A DNA stretch of 43,736 nt. It comes from a virus. Location of the stretch: the IMG/VR virus record IMGVR_UViG_3300027832_000037, positions 1 through 43,736 of that record; one strand, written 5' to 3'. Below the pieces are notes generated by a model. That model had not been told where the DNA came from. It worked only from the letters and a program-made list of their open reading frames with translations, and did no database searches. Below are positions 1,977 to 41,066 of the stretch, piece by piece. Position numbers and translations under genes: made by a program. Every line of letters begins with the position of its first letter. The stretch's first letter is position 1.

Positions 1977-4292
1977 ATGACCGACTGGAAAAACAGAATC
2001 ACCGGAAGCGGCACCGAGGACCCCGAGCAGCTACTAGCCAACCCGCACAACTTCCGCTACCACCCAAAGCACCAGCAAGATGCGCTAGCCGGCGTGCTAA
2101 ATGAAATCGGCTGGATTCAGGACGTCATAGTCAACACCACCACCGGCCACATCATCGACGGCCACCTCCGCGTTCAGTTAGCCATGAGCCGGAGCGAGCG
2201 CGTGCCGGTAAAATACGTCGAGCTATCCGAGAACGAGGAGCGGATCGCGCTAGCAGCAATAGACCCAATATCAGCACTCGCCACCCAGGACCAGGGACTA
2301 CTAGACGACCTAATCGAAGGCATACACAGCGTCGGCGATATGGCCGCGAACGCATTTCTCCAAAGCCTACTATCCGACGACGGTCCGGACTTCGGAGGCG
2401 GGCAGCAGGAGGAAGCGCGCCAAGGACTACAGCAGCGCTTCCTCGTCCCGCCATTCAGCGTGCTAGACGCCAAGCAGGGCTACTGGAAGGACCGCAAGAA
2501 CCTATGGCTACAACTAGGCATCCAGTCAGAACTAGGCCGCGGCAACGAGGGCGACAAAACAGAGCGCGGCCTAACCTACGCCGTCAGCAGCCAGCCTCCA
2601 GGCGTTTACGAATTCAAAAACAAGGTAGAAGCCCAGCGCGGGCGCAAGCTAACCTGGCAGGAGTTCGTCGAGGAATTCCCCGAGGAGATAACGCTAACCG
2701 GAACAAGCATATTCGACCCGGTGCTAACCGAGATAAGCTACTCATGGTTTTGCCCTCCAGGCGGCGCGATCCTAGACCCGTTCGCCGGCGGCAGCGTCCG
2801 CGGATTGGTCGCAGGATTCCTCGGCTACAACTACACCGGCATCGACCTACGCGGCGAGCAGATACAGGCTAACCGACAACAGGCCTTCAAAATACTCGGA
2901 GCCCAAACACCAGGGAAGCCGGCGGCAGACCTACCACCAACCAGAATCCAGGAGCACGACGGCATCCGAGTACTCCGCGACGACGATGTATTCGGCGGCA
3001 CCAAACGAAGGGCGCTAGAGCGAGTGCTCGCCGCCTCTCCCGAGACCACCTTCGTGTACGCCACACCGGCCTATGGTTTCGCGCAAATAGCGCTAGCGGC
3101 CGCAGCCAGGGCAACAGGGAAGCAAGCGCATATATTCGTCGCAGGCCGACGCAAAAAGCCGCACGCCAGGACCGAAGCCGCAGCGCGAGCCGGAGCAGTA
3201 GTCCACGAAGTCGACGCGAGATACCTAATCGCCACCCAAAAGGCCGCCCGAGACTTCGCCGAGGAGACCGGCGCGCACTACATCGAATTCGGCCTAGATA
3301 ACCAGGACTTCATCGACGCCATAGCGGCCGTCGCGCTAGAGACCGGAGAAACACCGACCGAAGTCTGGACCGTAGCAGGAAGCGGCGTCCTAACCAGGGC
3401 GCTACAGCAGGCTTGGCCTGACGCTGAATTCCACGCGGTAGCCATAGGCAAAGACCCCCAGGTCGGAAGGGCTAAGCTATACGAGGCTCCGGAAAAGTTC
3501 GAGGACCCAGCAAAACAGCCGCCGCCTTTCGAGTCATGCAACAACTACGACGCCAAAGCCTGGAGATTCATCAAGGAGCACGCCAGCGAAGGCGCATTAT
3601 TCTGGAACGTAGCAGGCGACGTCGGCACATTCGATATAATGCGACAGGCCCAGGGAGAGCCGCGATGGATCGAAGGCGACTCCAGGGAAGTCCGAAAACA
3701 CGCCCCAGGCGAATACGATATGGTTTTTAGTTGCCCTCCATACGCCGACCTGGAAGTCTACAGCGACGACCCGAAGGACCTATCGACCCTCGAATATCAC
3801 GAATTTATAGCGGCCTACACCCACATAATCGGCGAAAGCTGCAAAATGCTAAAGGACAACAGATTCGCGGTATTCGTAGTCGGCGAAGTACGAGACCCCA
3901 AAGGGCGTTACAGGGGTTTCGTCCAGGATACCATTGCGGCCTTCCAGGCGGCCGGCCTTCACTACTACAACGAGGCGGTGCTGCTTACCAACATAGGAAG
4001 CAACGCCATGCGCGCCGGCGGTATGTTCAGCAGCAGCCGGAAGCTAGCGAAAGGGCACCAGAACGCGCTGGTATTCGCAAAAGGCGAGCCCAGCCTGGGC
4101 GACATAAAGGGACTCAGCAAAGCGGTCGCAGACCACTTCAAAGTGCACCGCACAGTATTTCAGGCATACGACAACGTCATGGTATTTTGTAAAGGAGACC
4201 CGAAGCTAGCCACCGAGACCATCGGCGAAGTGAAAACCGTAGACCTAGAGGCGCTGCAGCTAGCGGCGATGGATTCAGAACTTAACCTATAG
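1977..4292 (+). CDS. ParB-like domain / DNA methyltransferase with an inserted PLP-type-II-like domain
   Basis: The 771-residue protein appears to contain three units. Residues about 14-100 are a ParB/Srx-like N-terminal domain (TGHIIDGHLRVQLA at 56-69). An AdoMet-methyltransferase core follows, with motif I (LDPFAGG, 266-272) and, far downstream, a CPPY catalytic motif (586-589), then a long C-terminal part shared with methylase-like phage proteins. Between the motifs, about 325-550, lies a region resembling fold-type-II PLP enzymes such as ACC deaminase and threonine synthase: GGTK (Lys 343, possible Schiff-base lysine), an alternating region YGFAQIALAAAARATGKQA, and a glycine loop TVAGSG (465-470) like the phosphate-binding loop. 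The methylase part fits adenine-N6 or cytosine-N4 chemistry. The PLP-like unit suggests amino-acid-derived base modification, which is inference. RBS AGGAG precedes ATG 1977. Confidence 0.72.
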   Translation: MTDWKNRITGSGTEDPEQLLANPHNFRYHPKHQQDALAGVLNEIGWIQDVIVNTTTGHIIDGHLRVQLAMSRSERVPVKYVELSENEERIALAAIDPISALATQDQGLLDDLIEGIHSVGDMAANAFLQSLLSDDGPDFGGGQQEEARQGLQQRFLVPPFSVLDAKQGYWKDRKNLWLQLGIQSELGRGNEGDKTERGLTYAVSSQPPGVYEFKNKVEAQRGRKLTWQEFVEEFPEEITLTGTSIFDPVLTEISYSWFCPPGGAILDPFAGGSVRGLVAGFLGYNYTGIDLRGEQIQANRQQAFKILGAQTPGKPAADLPPTRIQEHDGIRVLRDDDVFGGTKRRALERVLAASPETTFVYATPAYGFAQIALAAAARATGKQAHIFVAGRRKKPHARTEAAARAGAVVHEVDARYLIATQKAARDFAEETGAHYIEFGLDNQDFIDAIAAVALETGETPTEVWTVAGSGVLTRALQQAWPDAEFHAVAIGKDPQVGRAKLYEAPEKFEDPAKQPPPFESCNNYDAKAWRFIKEHASEGALFWNVAGDVGTFDIMRQAQGEPRWIEGDSREVRKHAPGEYDMVFSCPPYADLEVYSDDPKDLSTLEYHEFIAAYTHIIGESCKMLKDNRFAVFVVGEVRDPKGRYRGFVQDTIAAFQAAGLHYYNEAVLLTNIGSNAMRAGGMFSSSRKLAKGHQNALVFAKGEPSLGDIKGLSKAVADHFKVHRTVFQAYDNVMVFCKGDPKLATETIGEVKTVDLEALQLAAMDSELNL

Positions 4293-4302
4293 AGACTGAA
4301 CG

Positions 4303-4782
4303 ATGGCGCAAACCATGAAGCAGAAATTCACAATGGCGCAAAAGCGAGAAATGGCCGTGAGCCTAATGCTGGCGGGCCTTTCATTGAAACAGATAGGCGA
4401 GCAGATAGGCGTCAGCAAGACCCGAGCGCATCAGCTCGTTCAGGAGGCGTTCAGCGAGTACGAACTACGGACACAGCAGACCATCGACAACCTACGAACC
4501 CGCCAATTGATGAGAATAAACATCCTCATGCAGGCGATATGGACGAAGGCGAAAGGCGGCGCGCTAGAGCATATCGACCGATGGGAAAAGCTAGCACGCC
4601 AGGAGGCCGCAATCGGAGGATTCAAAGCGCCGGACAAGATCGCAAACACCGACAGCAAGGGCCGCGACCTACCCAGGCCCGAGGACGATTACGACAACAT
4701 GACCGTCGAGGAGCTAGAGAATCGGATCAAGGAACTAGAGGCCAAAACGATAGGACGCCATGACGGCCCAACAACGCACTGA
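4303..4782 (+). CDS. Terminase small subunit-like, helix-turn-helix
   Basis: This 159-residue protein carries an N-terminal helix-turn-helix (about residues 17-50, with LSLKQIGEQIGVSKTRAHQL), a helical middle that could oligomerise, and an acidic C terminus. It lies immediately before the large terminase subunit and overlaps it by 23 bases in another frame. Small terminase subunits bind phage DNA and present it to the motor. Sequence conservation in this family is weak, so the call rests on the HTH plus position. Confidence 0.78.
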   Translation: MAQTMKQKFTMAQKREMAVSLMLAGLSLKQIGEQIGVSKTRAHQLVQEAFSEYELRTQQTIDNLRTRQLMRINILMQAIWTKAKGGALEHIDRWEKLARQEAAIGGFKAPDKIANTDSKGRDLPRPEDDYDNMTVEELENRIKELEAKTIGRHDGPTTH

Positions 4783-6376
4783 TTCGCTTGTCCAGATAGT
4801 AAAGGCAAAGGAGGCGCTATACAGAAAGCAGGCCGCGAGCCACCTCGACACCTTTTGCCGATACGTCAAAATCCCAGGCGCGCCGCTTAACGACGACGAG
4901 GACTGCGAGGAGTTCTATCCGGACAGAGTAACGCCCGCGGAGCACCACACCCTACTCAACAGCAAGCTCCAGGAAGTAAACGACGGAACCATAAAGCGCC
5001 TAATGGTATTCATGCCACCAGGGAGCGCCAAAAGCACCTACGTCAGCGTAACTTTCCCGCCGTTCTACATGGCAAACCACCCAAACGAGCCGGTCATTCT
5101 AACCAGCTACGGCAGCCAGCTAGCGGACAAGTTCGGCCGGAAGGGCCGGCAGCTAACCAGCTCGCCTGAGTTCAAAAACCTCTACAAGACCGAGCTCCGC
5201 TCCGGCAACAGGGCAGCCAACGACTGGAGCCTAACCAACGACGCCACGTTTATGTGCGGCGGCATACTATCCGGCCTAACCGGCAACAGGGCCAAGCTAA
5301 TCATCGTAGACGACCCCGTCCAGGGAAGGGAGCAGGCCGACTCGCAGGTCATACGGGACAAAACGTGGGACGCCTACCAGGACGACCTCACCACCCGACT
5401 AAAACCGGAAGGCGCAATCGTTATCGTCCAGACCCGCTGGCACGAGGACGATCTAAGCGGCCGAATATTGCCGGAGGAGTGGGATGGGCAGAGCGGCTGG
5501 ATCGAAAGCCGCACCGGCGAGCCCTGGTACGTCCTATGCCTAGAGGCCGAGTGCACCAGGGACGACGACCCGCTCGGGCGTGAGGCAGGCGAATATCTAT
5601 GGACCGACTGGTTCACGCCGGCGCATTGGCAGCGTGAAAAGCGCAACAGGGGCAGCAGGAATTGGGCCGCCCTATACCAGCAACGACCGAAGCCAGCGGA
5701 AGGATCGCTCATACAGCGATCATGGATTCAGCGTTATGGCACACCGCCGGCCGAATTTTTACGAATAGTTCAATCCTGGGACACCGCGTACAAAGACAAG
5801 GAAATCAACGACCCGAGCGTCTGCCTAACCTGGGGCGAAACGCGGCAGGGCTACTATTTGCTAGACGTATTCAGGAAGCGCCTGCTATATCCAGACGTCA
5901 GGCGTTCCATGTACAGTTTGGGCATGAAGTGGAACCCGATAGCCGTTCTCATAGAGGACAAGGCAAGCGGGCAGTCGCTAATCCAGGAAGCACGCGAAGG
6001 CGTCAAAATACAGGAGGGGGAATGGTACACGCCGCCGGCCATTGCAATAGACCCGAAATCGCTCAACAAGACCGAGCGGCTAGTAGCAGTCTCCTCGATA
6101 GTAGAGGCCAAGCTCGTATATTTGCCCGAGTGGGCAGAGTGGCTGGTCGACTTCGAAAGCGAGCTATTCGGCTATCCGCTGGTTTCCAACGACGATCAAG
6201 TGGACGCATTCAGCCAATTCCTGAAATGGGCTCACAGTTCGAAAATGGCAGTAGACAGCCACAGCAGCGGAACGACCAGGGCAGGCTTCTCCGACACAGG
6301 CAGGAGCAGGCATTCAGCAACGGACGACCTAGACCTGGGCGTGCGCAGTAACAACGACTTCGGAGGGTACGAGTAA
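4760..6376 (+). CDS. Terminase large subunit (ATPase and nuclease)
   Basis: The 538-residue protein has the standard packaging-motor layout. The ATPase Walker A is PPGSAKST (residues 86-93) and Walker B is LIIVDDP (180-186). The C-terminal RNase H-fold nuclease has acidic residues at QSWDTAY (Asp 341), VLIEDKASG (Asp 400) and NDDQVDAF (Asp 478/479/482). It pumps DNA into the prohead through the portal and cuts it. The start overlaps the small subunit. The last 45 residues are Ser/Arg/Asp-rich and look disordered. The stop overlaps the portal start as TAATG, implying translational coupling. Confidence 0.95.
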   Translation: MTAQQRTDSLVQIVKAKEALYRKQAASHLDTFCRYVKIPGAPLNDDEDCEEFYPDRVTPAEHHTLLNSKLQEVNDGTIKRLMVFMPPGSAKSTYVSVTFPPFYMANHPNEPVILTSYGSQLADKFGRKGRQLTSSPEFKNLYKTELRSGNRAANDWSLTNDATFMCGGILSGLTGNRAKLIIVDDPVQGREQADSQVIRDKTWDAYQDDLTTRLKPEGAIVIVQTRWHEDDLSGRILPEEWDGQSGWIESRTGEPWYVLCLEAECTRDDDPLGREAGEYLWTDWFTPAHWQREKRNRGSRNWAALYQQRPKPAEGSLIQRSWIQRYGTPPAEFLRIVQSWDTAYKDKEINDPSVCLTWGETRQGYYLLDVFRKRLLYPDVRRSMYSLGMKWNPIAVLIEDKASGQSLIQEAREGVKIQEGEWYTPPAIAIDPKSLNKTERLVAVSSIVEAKLVYLPEWAEWLVDFESELFGYPLVSNDDQVDAFSQFLKWAHSSKMAVDSHSSGTTRAGFSDTGRSRHSATDDLDLGVRSNNDFGGYE

Positions 6377-7890
6377 TGGCTACCAAAAAGAAACCAGCAA
6401 AACCGCTGCAGCAGGAAATGGCGCACGACGATCACGGCTTCGCCATGAGCTACGCCTACACCCACATGCTAATCCAGAATCCGGACAGCGTGCTCAAAAG
6501 CCGCGGGCCCGACTTCAAGGTATACGACGAGCTCCTACGCGACGATCAGGTCAAGTCATGCTTTCAGCAGCGCCGCAGCGCGCTAACAAGTTCCACATGG
6601 AAAATTGATTCGGAAAGCGAATCGGCAACAGACAAAGCGGCCGCGGAATTCCTCCGGCAGCAGCTAGAGAAAGTTGGCTGGGACGACATAACCGACAAGA
6701 TGCTATACGGCGTATTCTACGGATTCAGCGTAGCGGAATTCATGTGGGGCATGACCGAGGACAACAAAGTCGGCCTCGACGCGATAAAGGTCCGCGACCG
6801 CTCCCGCTTCAAGTGGAACGTCGACAACCAGCTAATGCTAATGGACGACCTAAAGCACTCGCAGGGCCTCGTCATGCCGGAAAACAAGTTCTGGACCTAC
6901 GCCGCCGGCGCAAGCCACGACGACAATCCCTACGGCCAGGGCCTCGCGCACTCGCTTTATTGGCCGGTATTTTTTAAGCGCAACGACATAAAGTTCTGGC
7001 TCGTATTCCTTGAGAAATTCGGGATGCCAACCACCGCCATCAGAATACCCGACGGCCAAATGAACGACCCGGTACAGATACGCAAAGCCAAGTCGGCCCT
7101 CCAATCTATTCAGCAGGACAGCGGCGTCGTAATACCCGACAGCATGGTCATAGAGCTAATCGAGGCCGCCCGATCCGGAACCGCCGACTACGCCCAGCTA
7201 GCCGGAAAGATGGACGGCGCAATATCGAAAGTAATCCTATCGCAGACCATGACCACGGACAGCGGCAGCAGCCGATCCCAGGCCGAGGTGCACCAGGGCG
7301 TCGCCAACGACCTAACCGACGCAGACGGCGACCTAATAGCCGACAGCTTCAAGAGGACCGCCGGCAAGTGGCTAACCGAGTGGAACTTCCCAGGCGCAGG
7401 CGTGCCCTCGATAGTACGGGACACAGCGCCGCCGGAGGACCTCAATCATCGCGCCGAGCGCGACGCCAAAATCTACGCACTAGGCTACGACCCGACCCTC
7501 GAATACATCGAGGACACCTACGGCATGGGCTGGGAAAAGCGCAAGGAAGCCGTTGTCCCGCCGGCACTAATGACCGGAGGGCAAGGACCTATGCCCGCGG
7601 AGTTCGCCGAGATAAGCAGCCTCCTGGCAGCCAGGGCAGGGCACCGGAACGACCAGCAACTACTAGCAGACGCCGCGGCAGGGCTCGCCACCAAATACAA
7701 AGAGCTTTACGGCAAGCGGGTCGAGCAGCTCCTCGGATACCTAGAGGAGAACCAGGACTTCGAAACATTCAAAAAGCACATCGCCGACATGATGGAGGAG
7801 ACCGCGCCCCAGGAGATAGTCGACACCGTACAGCGGGCCACCGTAATGGGCAGGCTCCTCGGAATGCTCCGCGGAGAACGCAAAAATTAA
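6376..7890 (+). CDS. Mu gp29-like portal protein (DUF935)
   Basis: This 504-residue protein matches Mu-type DUF935 portals in length and character: a basic N terminus, an early region around DELLRDDQVKSCFQQRR typical of the family, and the core YGVFYGFSVAEFMW. The portal dodecamer forms the DNA channel at one capsid vertex and docks the terminase. It is flanked by TerL and MuF, the expected Mu-like order. The start ATG overlaps the TerL stop by one base. Confidence 0.92.
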   Translation: MATKKKPAKPLQQEMAHDDHGFAMSYAYTHMLIQNPDSVLKSRGPDFKVYDELLRDDQVKSCFQQRRSALTSSTWKIDSESESATDKAAAEFLRQQLEKVGWDDITDKMLYGVFYGFSVAEFMWGMTEDNKVGLDAIKVRDRSRFKWNVDNQLMLMDDLKHSQGLVMPENKFWTYAAGASHDDNPYGQGLAHSLYWPVFFKRNDIKFWLVFLEKFGMPTTAIRIPDGQMNDPVQIRKAKSALQSIQQDSGVVIPDSMVIELIEAARSGTADYAQLAGKMDGAISKVILSQTMTTDSGSSRSQAEVHQGVANDLTDADGDLIADSFKRTAGKWLTEWNFPGAGVPSIVRDTAPPEDLNHRAERDAKIYALGYDPTLEYIEDTYGMGWEKRKEAVVPPALMTGGQGPMPAEFAEISSLLAARAGHRNDQQLLADAAAGLATKYKELYGKRVEQLLGYLEENQDFETFKKHIADMMEETAPQEIVDTVQRATVMGRLLGMLRGERKN

Positions 7891-7903: not shown

Positions 7904-10900
7904 ATGGAGGTAAGCGCGCAGTTCGACCTAGAGCCGGTCGACGCCGTCAAGTTCATCCAGGCTAAAGGGCTATCCCCAACCTTCAACTGGTACGAAATGC
8001 TGGGCGACGAGCACGACGCCGCGTTCACCGTAGCCAAAATGATGGACACCGACCTGCTAGCGACGGTCCAGGAGCGGCTCGGCAAAGCGCTCCAGGAAGG
8101 TAAGACCTTCGCCGACTTTCAGAAGGAGCTAATCCCCGAGCTACAGAAGGCCGGATGGTGGGGCAAAAAGGACGTCATAGACCCGAGCACCGGCCTAGTC
8201 GTAAAGGCCCAGCTCGGCAGCGCCACGCGCCTAGAGACCATATTCAGAAGCAACCTGCAAAGCGCCTACAGCGTAGGCCATTGGGACAAGATAGCGAAAA
8301 ACGCCAAAGACGCACCGTTTCTCCTATACGACGCCGTGGACGACTTCAGGGTCCGGCCGGAGCACGCAGCGCTCGACAATCAAGTGCACCCCGTATATTC
8401 CGATTTTTGGAAAACGCACTTCCCTCCCAACGGCTGGAATTGCCGCTGCGGCGTGATACAGCTAGACGAGGACGACATAAAAGACCTCGGGCTCACGCCA
8501 ATCAAAAAGCCGGACATTAAAACGAAGGACTGGACCAACCCGAAGGACGGAACGCTCCACAAAGTACCCATCGGCACCGACCCAGGCTGGGACCACAACC
8601 CAGGCCTCGCCAGGATGAAAAATCTGCTAGTCCAGGCCGACGACAAAGCCAAGAGCCTCCTGGAGCGGCAGCGCAAGGCCGTCAAAGCAGCCCAGGGCAA
8701 ACAGGCAGTGATGCAAGCAGCCTACAAGGCCGATATAGCGAAGGACCTAGAGGTTCAGAAACTCAGCACCGTAAAGGCCCAGGCACAGCAGGCCATAGAC
8801 GACGCGCTAATCAGCAAGGAGCCATACCTCGCGCCCGAGCTCAAAAAGATAATCGCAAAGAATCCAGGCATCGACCCGACCGAAGCGCTCGCCAAGGCCC
8901 AGGGGAAAGCGGCGTACTACAAAGGAAAAGCCCTGGAAGCCAATTACAAAAAGGCAAAGATCGCCGGAAAGGAACCGAGCCCAGCATCAGCGGCGCACGT
9001 TGCCACGCTATCGGACGAAGCGAAAGGCGTCCTAGAGTACGACATAGACGTCAAGAGCGGGCAGGCAGCAGCGCAGGAAGCAATCCTCGCCATTGCCACC
9101 GGCAAAGCGCCCAAGCAGATGAAGCTGCAGCAGACCTTATTCGAGAAGTTCAGCATCGACGGAACAGCCGCGGGCTTCGGAACCGACTACAAGGGCCTCG
9201 TCAAAGCGATCCAGGACGAAGCCGACGCGCAAATGGCAACGGGTAAGATCTCCGCGGTAATCAGCGGCTATAAGAAAAAGGTCCTCGAAGGCAAAATCCC
9301 GAGCCCGCAACAGCAGACCATATTCAACGGCCTAGACGACGCAGCGAAGGCGAAGGTCCTCGCCGATATAGATGCGAAAAAGGCGAAGGCGAACAAGGCC
9401 ACATCAACAATTGAGCCCTCAAATGAGGCGGCAAATATTGATCCGGCCGCACCGGACGCACCAGTCGTCCAGGCCAAAGTCGTATCCGCAGAGACCGAAT
9501 TCAATCCCGACAGCATGACAAAGATCGGCGGCCAGGGAGGATCGAACCCAGGCGGGCTATACCAGGACACCGACACCGGCGTGAAGTGGTACATCAAGGA
9601 ACCGAAGTCCATCGACAACGGCCGCAACGAAGTACTCGGCGCTAAGATATACGAAGCTGCCGGCATAGACGCGCCCCAGGTTCAAATGGTCAACTTCCAG
9701 GGCAAGGACCAGATCGCCAGCAAGATCATCGACGGCCTGGAATCAAACAGCGCAGCACTCAAGGCCGGCGCGCCAGGAGCGGCCGAGGGTTTCATGGTCG
9801 ACGCATGGCTAGCCAATTGGGACGTCGTAGGTCAGGGCTTTGATAATCTACTACTCAAGGGCGGCAGAGCGGTACGCGTAGACACCGGCGGCACGCTCCG
9901 TTACAGGGCCCAGGGAACGCTTAAGGGCACAGAGTGGGGCGACATAGTCCAGGAGATAGAATCATTACGCAGCCCGCAATATAACTCCCAGTCCGCCTCG
10001 GTATTCGGGAGCATGACACAGGAGCAATTGATCGAAAGCGCCCGCAAAGTCGCGCTATTCACCGACGACAAGATCGACGACCTCATCAAGAACTACGGGC
10101 CCCTGGATAGCCGAGCCAGGAAAACGCTCGCGGCCACGCTCAAGGCGCGCAGGGAGTTTATCCTCGAAGCCTTCCCCGAGGCCAGGACCAGGACGCCGGC
10201 GGCAATAGTAGACACCGGAGAGCGAGTCACGCGCATCGAGCTAGAGAACGTCAACAACAGCCGAATCAATGGCTACGCAGTACCGACTGACAAAGACAGC
10301 ATCGAGGACCAGAGCGTTCTCGTTTGGCATAAAACGGACGCAAACAAGAACGAAATCACCGCAGCCTATTTCAAAGTGAAGGGCGAAGCCGCCGAAAGGA
10401 TGCTCGCGCAGACCACAACAGCGCCAGCGAACTACAACGACGTCCACGAAAAGATAAAAAAAGCGGCTACCTCCATCCGGCACCGCATAGATAACAACGA
10501 GACCAGCCTCGGCTCGGCCATAAGCAAGCTACAGATTGCCGCCAACAGCTACGACGAAATGATCGCCGGACTCAAAGCCGAAGTGGCAGCAGGAACAAGG
10601 GCGCAGAAATCGGTCACAGAAATACAGAAAAAAATAGAGCCATATATAAAGCAGATCAAGGACAGCATCGCCGCATCGGCTCCAGTGTGGGATAAAAATC
10701 TCACTGAGCTATACGAGGAGTTCAATATTGGGGCCGCCAAGCTAAAAGCGCCAGAGGCCGGCACGATTAGATGGTTGGAAAAAGAAAACCACACCTACAA
10801 CCTCAATCAACTTGATAAGTCTTACCACCGCGAAACCAGCAGCCGAGCGGTCGTTCAAACTAAGGTATTCGAGGCCGAAATAGACGGCGTCAAGATACGC

Positions 10901-11875
10901 TACTTCCCTGACATTCCAGAAGTCAAAGCAGCGTTGCGTGGGCGCGTAGATATAGAGGTCCCAGGGAACGGCCTGCCAGCATCCAGCAAGATATTCGAAA
11001 CAATAGAGCAACTAGGAATAGACAGCACCAGGGCAAGCGCCGCATCCCAGGAAATGCTCTATCTGCAGCAGCTCGGATATATCCACCGGCTGGACAAAAA
11101 AGCCGATTTCATCGCAGCGATAAAGGCCGGAGACACCGCGAAAGCGAAGGCGCTAATCAGCAAGGCGTCAGGCGTGGACATAGACAACGTGCACTACCGG
11201 CCGGAAGGCGAGCATCAAGCCTTTGAGCATGGACGCAGAACACGCTACCGGCCTGAACTATTAGGGCACCCTGAATGGGAGGGATTCGAAAAGAACCACC
11301 GTGTTATTCACCGATTCACATCGAACGGAAGCGTGCTCAATAACATCAAAATACTCGTCAACGGCGGCGGCCAAATGGCACCGACGGCAGACAAAATAAG
11401 GCGCGGCGTCAGCATAGACGGAATGAGCCCAGGGCCCGACTTAAACAGCGGAGGCGCTACCTATTTCTTCACCAGGATAAAAACCGCAGAGCAGGCAAAG
11501 GTTGGGAGCATCGTCTGGAAGGCGAAGGTCGCCGCACGAAGCGACGCCATAAGCTACGATGGCGACAAGTACGGCCGAACGTTCGACTACGTCCCCAACG
11601 CGCAAGAATCAAGCGGCCCTGATTTTGTTCAGGACTATGTCCAGACGAACAGGCAAACAAAGGTCCAGGACCTAATGGAGATAGCTAGATCGACGAACGA
11701 AACCATCGTCAAAGACACCCTATCAATCTTCGACGACCTAGATTACATTAACGCCGCAAACAATCGGGAGCGAATAGAGATAATCAAGTTCCTAAAAAAC
11801 GAAGGCTACAGCACATGGCCGGACGGCAGATCAGTCACTGAAGTAGTTAGAGTCAACGGAGAGCTAGTCAGATGA
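7904..11875 (+). CDS. MuF head protein fused to a kinase-like domain and an unidentified C-terminal domain
   Basis: This protein has 1323 residues, several times longer than a plain MuF protein. Residues 1-190 form the MuF head-morphogenesis domain, ending in the signature PPNGWNCRCGV. Residues about 240-530 are Ala/Lys/Gln-rich helices with recurring KA and AQ blocks, probably a linker. Residues about 533-765 resemble a protein- or lipid-kinase fold: GGLY, then KWYIK (Lys 565), RNEVL (Glu 576), NWD (Asp 640), DN (Asp 647, Asn 648) and RVDTGG (Asp 660). A helical stretch follows (about 840-960). The last 200 residues include GMSPGPDLNSGGATYFFTR and look like a separate compact domain that I cannot name; an ADP-ribosyltransferase-like effector is one guess. 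Long MuF proteins can carry toxins injected with DNA. The RBS before ATG 7904 is weak. Confidence 0.85.
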   Translation: MEVSAQFDLEPVDAVKFIQAKGLSPTFNWYEMLGDEHDAAFTVAKMMDTDLLATVQERLGKALQEGKTFADFQKELIPELQKAGWWGKKDVIDPSTGLVVKAQLGSATRLETIFRSNLQSAYSVGHWDKIAKNAKDAPFLLYDAVDDFRVRPEHAALDNQVHPVYSDFWKTHFPPNGWNCRCGVIQLDEDDIKDLGLTPIKKPDIKTKDWTNPKDGTLHKVPIGTDPGWDHNPGLARMKNLLVQADDKAKSLLERQRKAVKAAQGKQAVMQAAYKADIAKDLEVQKLSTVKAQAQQAIDDALISKEPYLAPELKKIIAKNPGIDPTEALAKAQGKAAYYKGKALEANYKKAKIAGKEPSPASAAHVATLSDEAKGVLEYDIDVKSGQAAAQEAILAIATGKAPKQMKLQQTLFEKFSIDGTAAGFGTDYKGLVKAIQDEADAQMATGKISAVISGYKKKVLEGKIPSPQQQTIFNGLDDAAKAKVLADIDAKKAKANKATSTIEPSNEAANIDPAAPDAPVVQAKVVSAETEFNPDSMTKIGGQGGSNPGGLYQDTDTGVKWYIKEPKSIDNGRNEVLGAKIYEAAGIDAPQVQMVNFQGKDQIASKIIDGLESNSAALKAGAPGAAEGFMVDAWLANWDVVGQGFDNLLLKGGRAVRVDTGGTLRYRAQGTLKGTEWGDIVQEIESLRSPQYNSQSASVFGSMTQEQLIESARKVALFTDDKIDDLIKNYGPLDSRARKTLAATLKARREFILEAFPEARTRTPAAIVDTGERVTRIELENVNNSRINGYAVPTDKDSIEDQSVLVWHKTDANKNEITAAYFKVKGEAAERMLAQTTTAPANYNDVHEKIKKAATSIRHRIDNNETSLGSAISKLQIAANSYDEMIAGLKAEVAAGTRAQKSVTEIQKKIEPYIKQIKDSIAASAPVWDKNLTELYEEFNIGAAKLKAPEAGTIRWLEKENHTYNLNQLDKSYHRETSSRAVVQTKVFEAEIDGVKIRYFPDIPEVKAALRGRVDIEVPGNGLPASSKIFETIEQLGIDSTRASAASQEMLYLQQLGYIHRLDKKADFIAAIKAGDTAKAKALISKASGVDIDNVHYRPEGEHQAFEHGRRTRYRPELLGHPEWEGFEKNHRVIHRFTSNGSVLNNIKILVNGGGQMAPTADKIRRGVSIDGMSPGPDLNSGGATYFFTRIKTAEQAKVGSIVWKAKVAARSDAISYDGDKYGRTFDYVPNAQESSGPDFVQDYVQTNRQTKVQDLMEIARSTNETIVKDTLSIFDDLDYINAANNRERIEIIKFLKNEGYSTWPDGRSVTEVVRVNGELVR

Positions 11876-12195
11876 CACCAGGACAATACAGCGCCCAGGG
11901 AAAGTCTATCCAGATAGGGGCCGGTGACTACTACGCCGCGCACGTTTTCGACCTGCCGGACGGCATAGCATTCATCGACCACGGCTGGGCAAACAACTAC
12001 CCAGGATCAGGGCAGCCATGCCACAAAGTATCCGGCACCTTCGAGGAGCACAAAATCCAGGGAGGCGGCTGGATAGCGTTAGACGCCGACGATTTCCAGA
12101 TATATAAGAACCAGGGCCCATCACCGGACGGCACCAGGGACGAAGCCAGGAAGGTTCTTCAAGACAGCCTCGATATCGTATTACCGGCAGACTAA
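11872..12195 (+). CDS. Small ORF coupled to the MuF fusion; candidate immunity or partner protein
   Basis: The 107-residue product is acidic and contains Gly-rich turns and aromatic residues (GAGDYYAAHVFDLPDG, GGGWIALDADD), suggesting a compact beta-rich soluble protein without signal or membrane segment. I do not recognise a family. Its ATG overlaps the stop of the giant MuF gene (ATGA at 11872-11875), so it is probably translated with it. A small gene tightly coupled to the 3' end of a polymorphic-toxin-like protein is the usual place for an immunity protein. That role is inferred from context only. Confidence 0.72.
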   Translation: MTPGQYSAQGKSIQIGAGDYYAAHVFDLPDGIAFIDHGWANNYPGSGQPCHKVSGTFEEHKIQGGGWIALDADDFQIYKNQGPSPDGTRDEARKVLQDSLDIVLPAD

Positions 12196-12259: not shown

Positions 12260-12838
12260 ATGTGGGTATTCACCAGCAAAGGATTCATCAGCGCAGTAAG
12301 GCACCGGAACAAGCCGGACGATTTTATGATCCGAGCCCGACGCCAGGAGCACCTCAAGGCGCTATTTCCAGGCAAGCAGGTCACTCAGCTAAACAACGCC
12401 GATTACAAATACCGCGTCACGGTAAGCGACGGCGACTTCAAAGAAATGATGCTCGGCGAAATCAACGCGCTAACCTACGACAACTTTAAGAAAAGCATCC
12501 CCGACGCGGAATACCACGACGCCTGCAGCGACGTATGGCAGGTCATGCACCGGCTACAGCCAGGGAGCTATATGCCCGCGCTATTCCAAAGCGACCAGGA
12601 GCGGGACCATTCGCCAGCCGACTACCCAACGTGCCAGGACTGCGGCAGCTTCGCCTTTGAGAGTTACATAGAGCAAGGCGAGGAAAAGCTCATTTGCGAG
12701 GACTGCGGCGAGCAGCACCAGGAAGGCCGCGCCTGGATCACAGCAATCGCGCAGCACGAAGCAGATCAGGCAAGGCTATGGCCGGACCTACCCTGGGACG
12801 ACGGCGCTAGCGACCAGCTACCGGCCGGGTTAGAATAA
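12260..12838 (+). CDS. Hypothetical protein with zinc ribbon (moron)
   Basis: The 192-residue product has an N-terminal part beginning MWVFTSKGFISAV, a start that seems familiar from phage and prophage hypothetical proteins of unknown function. Its C-terminal part holds a four-cysteine zinc-ribbon pattern: Cys 125/128 (CQDC) and Cys 146/149 (CEDC). The RBS is weak. It has its own extended -10 promoter and a strong terminator immediately after it, so it looks like an independently expressed accessory gene within the late region. A DNA-, RNA- or protein-binding role is possible but not shown. Confidence 0.8.
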   Translation: MWVFTSKGFISAVRHRNKPDDFMIRARRQEHLKALFPGKQVTQLNNADYKYRVTVSDGDFKEMMLGEINALTYDNFKKSIPDAEYHDACSDVWQVMHRLQPGSYMPALFQSDQERDHSPADYPTCQDCGSFAFESYIEQGEEKLICEDCGEQHQEGRAWITAIAQHEADQARLWPDLPWDDGASDQLPAGLE

Positions 12839-40415: not shown

Positions 40416-41066
40416 CTATAAAAGCGCCGAGCGGCCCATAAATACCACGACCCCAGCGACCAATAAAGCATCCTCACGATCAGAGGACAAGTAATCACTA
40501 GCAGCGCGGTAAATCGTGCACCCGAACCGATCCTGGAAGTTGTCCAGCGACAAATACGTTTGACCCCGTATCTCGCTCACCACCCGAAGCTCGGCGCGAT
40601 TCCACCCAGGGGCAACGCAAACAACCAGGGAGCCCGAGACCACAGCAGCAGCAGGATCAGCAAACACCACATCGCCCACGGATACATCGAACCCCATACT
40701 GCACATCGTAGTATCGACCAGCATCGTAAAAGCAAGGCGGGAGACCGGCACCGGTGACGAGTAGCGAGGATCATTCTGCGGCGCAGCATCAAGACCATCC
40801 AGCACGCCAACAGCAACCTCGAAAGGCGTCAGGCATGGCAGCAGATCGCCCGAAGGACCACCGGCCGGCGATCCGATACCGTTCTGGATATAGGACATTT
40901 CCTCACCGAGCGCGGAAACGATAGCCGGCAGGTAACGCGAGGAAGGATCGGGCCGGCCCTCAATGTCGACAATAGTTTGCTGGGAACAGCCAGCCAGGGC
41001 AGCCAGATCCTTTTGAGTAAGCCCCTGGGATTTCCGCGAGGATCGTATTCGTAAACCGGCTGACAT
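40416..41066 (-). CDS. XRE/S24-like phage repressor
   Basis: The 216-residue protein has an N-terminal HTH (about 13-38; GLTQKDLAALAGCSQQTIVD) and a C-terminal LexA/CI-like fold. The usual catalytic serine is present in CSMGFDVSVGDVVFAD (Ser 123, eight residues before Gly 131 as in the family). The lysine position reads VVSEIR (Ser 164), so the Ser/Lys dyad seems incomplete. It is the likely master repressor, transcribed away from the replication genes. The promoter overlaps an ATACCGG site, implying autoregulation. Confidence 0.88.
   Translation of the reverse strand: MSAGLRIRSSRKSQGLTQKDLAALAGCSQQTIVDIEGRPDPSSRYLPAIVSALGEEMSYIQNGIGSPAGGPSGDLLPCLTPFEVAVGVLDGLDAAPQNDPRYSSPVPVSRLAFTMLVDTTMCSMGFDVSVGDVVFADPAAAVVSGSLVVCVAPGWNRAELRVVSEIRGQTYLSLDNFQDRFGCTIYRAASDYLSSDREDALLVAGVVVFMGRSALL

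What the first reader, a model, noticed from the sequence alone, without database searches (positions are those of the whole stretch)
7904..11875. MuF head protein carrying a kinase-like domain and a separate C-terminal domain
Seen: MuF domain with PPNGWNCRCGV, then kinase-like landmarks Lys 565, Glu 576, Asp 640, Asp 647/Asn 648, Asp 660, then a compact final 200 residues with SGGATYFFTR. Known: long MuF proteins can act as polymorphic toxins carried with the virion. Inference: the phage packages an effector delivered with DNA, able to phosphorylate a host target or itself, plus a second activity.
Basis: partly seen in the sequence, partly recalled or inferred. Interest (0 to 1): 0.78.

Follow-up and report, generated by a model that had tools for sequence, protein, structure and literature searches.

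The report
Phage head protein with two enzymes
A minor head protein of a probably temperate phage carries two built-in enzymes that modify other molecules, a HipA-like kinase and an ADP-ribosyltransferase of an unnamed family, and sits beside a fast-changing small gene that looks like its antidote; the same three-part design recurs in many phages, but nothing has been tested at the bench.

Summary
The 1323-aa ORF (7904-11875) follows terminase and portal and is a MuF head protein. Residues 533-762 form a HipA-like kinase: AlphaFold2 pLDDT 96.5, best PDB match the HipA-like kinase CtkA. It matches no Pfam model, and its sequence profile does not match DarT's. MuF-kinase-ART proteins recur in dozens of viral contigs and prophages. 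Where this ART is missing, an unrelated R-S-E ART usually fills the same slot. The small gene overlapping the stop codon (11872-12195) belongs to a fast-evolving family found beside 147 of 158 copies of this ART, never elsewhere in the loci and never beside kinase proteins lacking it. It also covaries most tightly with the ART, as a cognate immunity protein would. Best reading: a virion-carried MuF effector with two modifying activities and its own antidote. Injection, targets, toxicity and immunity are untested. I rate it a new variant of a known kind (MuF-ART toxins such as Bxa).

The parts
7904..11875 (+). Whole gene: MuF minor head protein with kinase and ART domains, 1323 aa
   Evidence: Open frame; follows terminase large subunit and portal
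7913..8626 (+). MuF head domain, residues 4-241 (Pfam core 54-184)
   Evidence: Pfam Phage_Mu_F E 2.8e-19; PHROG_220; profile hit in the survey
8627..9499 (+). Linker between MuF and kinase, residues 242-532; poorly conserved
   Evidence: Partial matches only in relatives
9500..10189 (+). HipA-like kinase domain, residues 533-762; K565, E576, D640, D647/N648, D660
   Evidence: AF2 pLDDT 96.5, pTM 0.93; Foldseek CtkA, HipA, HipT; HipA_C in 52/66 members; hhalign to HipA_C E 6.6e-7; conservation
10214..10411 (+). MID segment, residues 771-836; unknown fold, nearly always precedes this ART
   Evidence: Architecture survey
10859..11872 (+). C-terminal domain of the ADP-ribosyltransferase fold, residues 986-1323; H1136, Y1187, E1266 as proposed active site
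   Evidence: AF2 pLDDT 90.3; the first 13 PDB structure matches are all ARTs, DarT first; H 81/84, Y 81/84, E 84/84
11872..12195 (+). Small partner gene, 107 aa, start overlaps the MuF gene's stop (ATGA); candidate immunity protein
   Evidence: Family found next to 147 of 158 ART genes, nowhere else in the loci, 0 of 56 kinase genes without this ART; covaries most with the ART
4760..6376 (+). Terminase large subunit (context)
   Evidence: PHROG_38 E 9e-105
6376..7890 (+). Portal protein (context)
   Evidence: PHROG_113 E 4e-113
40416..41066 (-). Repressor-like regulator (context; suggests a temperate phage)
   Evidence: PHROG_4 transcriptional repressor E 5.7e-9

Best explanation
This is a MuF-family effector built into the phage head. 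The MuF part places it at the portal/head (inferred from the family). On infection it, or its C-terminal part, enters the new host with the DNA (inferred). There the HipA-like kinase phosphorylates one or more host proteins, possibly after autophosphorylation as in HipA, and the C-terminal ART transfers ADP-ribose from NAD+ to a host macromolecule; together they disable or redirect the host early in infection (fold and intact active sites shown by prediction and conservation; activity and targets inferred). In the cell that makes the phage, or in a lysogen, the small protein encoded by the overlapping downstream gene binds and holds the ART in check (inferred from strict linkage and covariation).
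For: Gene order and MuF family. Confident kinase model, HipA/CtkA fold match and near-invariant catalytic residues. ART fold and conserved H/Y/E. Same architecture in dozens of other viruses and prophages. A different ART class in the same slot in most kinase proteins that lack this one, so an ART partner is the rule. Partner gene tracks this ART only and covaries with it at r = 0.89 against 0.73 for the kinase and 0.68 for MuF. One relative with kinase and ART is annotated as particle-associated. Precedent: Bxa, a MuF-ART toxin with two adjacent immunity proteins (PMC11699363).
Against: No activity, target, toxicity, packaging or injection has been shown for this protein. The ART match to solved structures is weak (best E 6e-3, TM by target about 0.5) and there is no sequence-profile match to DarT. 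The partner could be a chaperone or a co-packaged protein. Proteobacterial phages carry many long MuF proteins whose extensions have no known role (PMC5576092).
Confidence: 0.5

Rival explanations
1. The enzymes act inside the producing cell during late infection (for example on the portal, on host takeover, or to block superinfecting phages) and are not injected; the MuF fusion only localises them.
For: The gene lies among late head genes. A HipA-like kinase encoded between portal and capsid genes in Gratiaviridae was proposed to act late in immunity to other phages (PMC8008677).
Against: MuF-linked ARTs and T4 Alt are the usual head-carried type (PMC9503650). A dedicated partner gene restricted to this ART suggests the activity must be held in check in the producer.
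Confidence: 0.2
2. The kinase is a regulator of its own protein rather than a second weapon: it phosphorylates the ART or linker and so times activation.
For: The kinase is fused to, or lies close to, ARTs of two unrelated classes, which fits a shared control module. HipA-family kinases are known to autophosphorylate (own knowledge).
Against: Pan1 has the MuF, MID and ART parts with no detectable kinase, and some kinase domains are in proteins without an ART, such as a NUDIX-kinase protein, so the two are separable.
Confidence: 0.15
3. The C-terminal ART modifies DNA, as DarT does, for example to mark or protect DNA entering the cell or to stop host replication.
For: DarT structures are the best fold matches, including complexes with NAD+ and with ssDNA; a viral match is an ORF30 protein of a granulovirus, and baculovirus ORF28-family ARTs are described as DarT-related (PMC9503650).
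Against: Weak structural score and no profile match to DarT; other top fold matches modify proteins or small targets.
Confidence: 0.12
4. The extensions are structural or degenerate remnants without catalysis.
For: MuF extensions without known function are common in phages of Proteobacteria (PMC5576092).
Against: Catalytic residues are nearly invariant across 84 and 108 divergent relatives, which decay would not leave.
Confidence: 0.04

Closest known systems
Bxa, MuF-ADP-ribosyltransferase toxin of a Bacteroides stercoris prophage (PMC11699363)
   Same: MuF head domain, C-terminal ART, encoded among head genes, small adjacent genes; in Bxa two of them are shown to be immunity proteins
   Different: No kinase is mentioned for Bxa (the word does not occur in the paper); Bxa is described as arginine-modifying, whereas this ART has an H-Y-E-type signature and no Pfam match
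MuF polymorphic toxins of temperate phages (PMC5576092)
   Same: N-terminal MuF, variable C-terminal effector, probably temperate phage
   Different: Kinase is not among the toxin domains named there (0 occurrences), and known-toxin MuF proteins were mostly in Firmicutes
HipA family and HipA-like kinases CtkA and HipT
   Same: Fold, ATP-site Lys/Glu and catalytic Asp/Asn/Asp pattern; a bridging prophage class keeps the NHDGH motif
   Different: Embedded in a head protein, no HipB or HipS-type partner seen; NWD replaces the usual NHD; Pfam HipA_C scores are below the curated cut-off in the members tested
DarT DNA ADP-ribosyltransferase
   Same: Best PDB fold match; H/N-L-x-x-I-L-x-x-G, RR and E elements look alike (by eye)
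   Different: No Pfam DarT match and no significant profile alignment; no DarG macrodomain partner
Phage T4 Alt and MuF-fused Alt/VIP2 or N4-type ARTs (PMC9503650)
   Same: Head-associated ART acting early in infection (Alt), direct MuF-ART fusions
   Different: Alt/VIP2 is the R-S-E class; here it is H-Y-E type, with a kinase in between. I could not test against the N4-ART/HYD2 profile
HipA-like kinase of Gratiaviridae (PMC8008677)
   Same: HipA-like kinase encoded between portal and capsid genes
   Different: Described as a kinase protein; no MuF or ART is mentioned in that paper

Membership tests
MuF head proteins | Phage_Mu_F domain above the curated cut-off | tested here: met
   70.4 bits against 29.6
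MuF head proteins | Encoded next to portal and terminase | tested here: met
MuF polymorphic toxins | Interchangeable C-terminal toxin domain on a shared N-terminus | tested here: met
   MuF-kinase proteins carry either this ART or an R-S-E ART
MuF polymorphic toxins | Adjacent cognate immunity gene | tested here: inconclusive
   Strict linkage and covariation shown; neutralisation not testable here
MuF polymorphic toxins | Toxic when expressed | not testable with these tools
   Needs an expression assay
HipA kinase superfamily | Kinase fold closest to HipA-like kinases | tested here: met
   CtkA E 3e-6 TM 0.65; HipA and HipT also match
HipA kinase superfamily | Pfam HipA_C above the curated cut-off | tested here: not met
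   Window protein has no match; 52 of 66 relatives match weakly, best E 1.3e-5
HipA kinase superfamily | Catalytic Lys, Glu, Asp, Asn, Asp kept | tested here: met
HipBA toxin-antitoxin system | HipB-like DNA-binding antitoxin next to the kinase | tested here: inconclusive
   None recognised upstream (portal) or in the 107-aa neighbour; no dedicated HipB search was run
ADP-ribosyltransferase superfamily | ART fold | tested here: met
   First 13 PDB matches are ARTs, but best E only 6e-3
ADP-ribosyltransferase superfamily | H-Y-E or R-S-E active-site pattern | tested here: met
   H1136 81/84, Y1187 81/84, E1266 84/84; assignment to active-site strands is by inspection
DarT | Pfam DarT match or significant profile match | tested here: not met
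   No match; hhalign prob below 1%
DarT | DarG or NADAR partner | tested here: not met
   Partner family of about 105-170 aa has no macrodomain or NADAR match
Polyvalent-protein ARTs and kinases (ART-PolyVal, Kinase-PolyVal) | Match to those Pfam models | tested here: not met
   No such match in whole-Pfam scans; a profile comparison could not be made (one search found no members)

The most novel reading that the evidence does not exclude
A phage head protein that is a two-enzyme modification machine: a HipA-like kinase and a DarT-fold ART of a new family, delivered with the DNA, in which the ART acts on DNA or the kinase licenses the ART, and which has its own small inhibitor family.
Probability: 0.15. 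Interest if true: 0.85.

Novelty: new variant of a known kind. Interest (0 to 1): 0.62.

Why it matters
If right, many tailed phages carry a kinase and an ADP-ribosyltransferase joined in one head protein, so two kinds of protein modification could reach the host at the moment of infection. It would add HipA-like kinases to MuF effectors, define an ART family absent from Pfam with its own candidate inhibitor, and turn the open question of what long MuF extensions in Proteobacteria phages do into something testable with a few constructs.

Tried and rejected
Single-sequence relatives searches in viral contigs found nothing, as did the two-sequence ART alignment; wider alignments worked. Sequence searches of the PDB were empty or chance. 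DarT membership was tested by profile comparison and not supported. A comparison with ART-PolyVal failed because no members were found. Literature searches for HipA with ART in phages and for MuF with HipA gave no relevant paper; this is not proof of absence, since many journals are not held. Pan1 was checked for a hidden kinase and none was found. The Pfam hits to apolipoprotein and other families in the linker are chance. One oversized Pfam call failed and was rerun smaller. A first attempt to hand in this report was rejected for missing fields.

Full report
What is there. The ORF at 7904-11875 is intact and encodes 1323 aa. It lies directly after terminase large subunit and portal genes. 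Further downstream come a head protease, major head protein, neck and tape-measure genes, then RecE/Bet-like genes and a repressor-like gene on the other strand, so the phage is tailed and probably temperate. The record is a 43,736-base virus contig; its host is not known to me.

MuF part. Pfam and PHROGs agree on a MuF domain. The closest isolated phages over this part infect Stenotrophomonas and Xanthomonas, and their MuF proteins, about 500 aa, lack the long extension.

Kinase part. No library named it in the window protein at a useful score. Relatives occur in 19 phage records and 398 viral contig stretches. AlphaFold2 gives a very confident model (pLDDT 96.5), and the best PDB matches are CtkA, HipA and HipT. 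Of 66 relatives, 52 match HipA_C weakly, and a profile comparison with true HipA_C domains gives E 6.6e-7 over the Lys/Glu region. A divergent prophage class with the classical NHDGH motif links the two: E 2e-21 to this family and 2e-7 to HipA_C.

C-terminal part. It matches nothing in Pfam in any of 30 relatives. The model (pLDDT 90.3) matches only ADP-ribosyltransferases among its first 13 PDB hits, DarT first, but weakly, with best E 6e-3. H1136, Y1187 and E1266 fit an H-Y-E active site by inspection and are conserved in at least 81 of 84 relatives. Profile comparison with DarT is not significant, so this is an ART-fold family, not a DarT.

How common it is. In a survey of fetched loci, 57 ORFs have all four parts (MuF, kinase, MID, ART); 49 were scored MID-ART only. 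At least two of the latter have a MuF domain by Pfam, and as a class their upstream region is a divergent HipA-like kinase. Some contigs appear twice, because two searches fetched them, so these counts are not independent. Kinase proteins without this ART usually carry an R-S-E type ART at the same end: 24 of 40 match ADPrib_exo_Tox and 13 of 40 match ART. In Gordonia phages an annotated ADP-ribosyltransferase gene lies two genes after the kinase gene. Pan1 has MuF, MID and ART without a detectable kinase, so the parts are separable.

The partner gene. The 107-aa gene starts inside the stop codon of the MuF gene. Its family was built by iterative search among downstream genes, which is partly circular; the check is that all 148 hits among 10,480 ORFs lie next to this ART, including 24 outside the downstream list that was checked (a few of these are other frames or a duplicate locus), and none lies next to the 56 kinase ORFs lacking it. 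Most of the 11 ART loci without a hit are at contig ends or are distant, ART-only relatives. Median pairwise identity is 18% for the partner against 35% for the ART, and partner divergence follows ART divergence (r = 0.89) more closely than kinase (0.73) or MuF (0.68). The Fisher value is not to be taken literally, since the sequences are related. This is the pattern of an immunity protein or a dedicated chaperone.

Mechanism. Shown: gene order, domain folds by prediction, conserved active sites, partner linkage. Inferred: packaging, injection, catalysis, targets, neutralisation. Particle association rests on one deposited annotation of a kinase-ART relative in Yersinia phage fHe-Yen8-01, whose paper I did not find. 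The nearest studied case is Bxa, a MuF-ART toxin with two immunity proteins.

Novelty. MuF-ART fusions, HipA-like phage kinases and MuF immunity genes are each known. The fixed combination of HipA-like kinase and ART in a head protein, this ART family, and its partner family were not found in the papers I could search. I therefore call it a new variant of a known kind.

Noticed in passing
L017 3331-8346 (same contig as L143): An in-frame insert of about 330 aa splits the MuF motif PPNGWN|CRCGV; it looks like an intein (TAQHPVLTTAGWV block, ends ...LSN before C).
   Followed up: partly
L063 5116-6663; also L074 4420-6693 and L082 4957-6660: A second gene with the same kinase domain lies just downstream of the first; in L063 it is fused to a NUDIX domain, again an ADP-ribose theme.
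   Followed up: partly
L010 and L011 (Gordonia phages): Kinase gene directly after the portal, with a separate annotated ADP-ribosyltransferase gene two genes later.
   Followed up: no
window 1977-4292: ParB-like domain fused to a DNA methyltransferase upstream of the terminase genes.
   Followed up: no
L032 8463-8783 (and duplicate L207): Partner-family gene on the opposite strand, facing the ART gene, so linkage does not depend on translational coupling.
   Followed up: partly
window 12260-12838: 192-aa protein with a zinc-ribbon-like cysteine pattern; relatives of about 100 aa occur in many of the related loci, function unknown.
   Followed up: no
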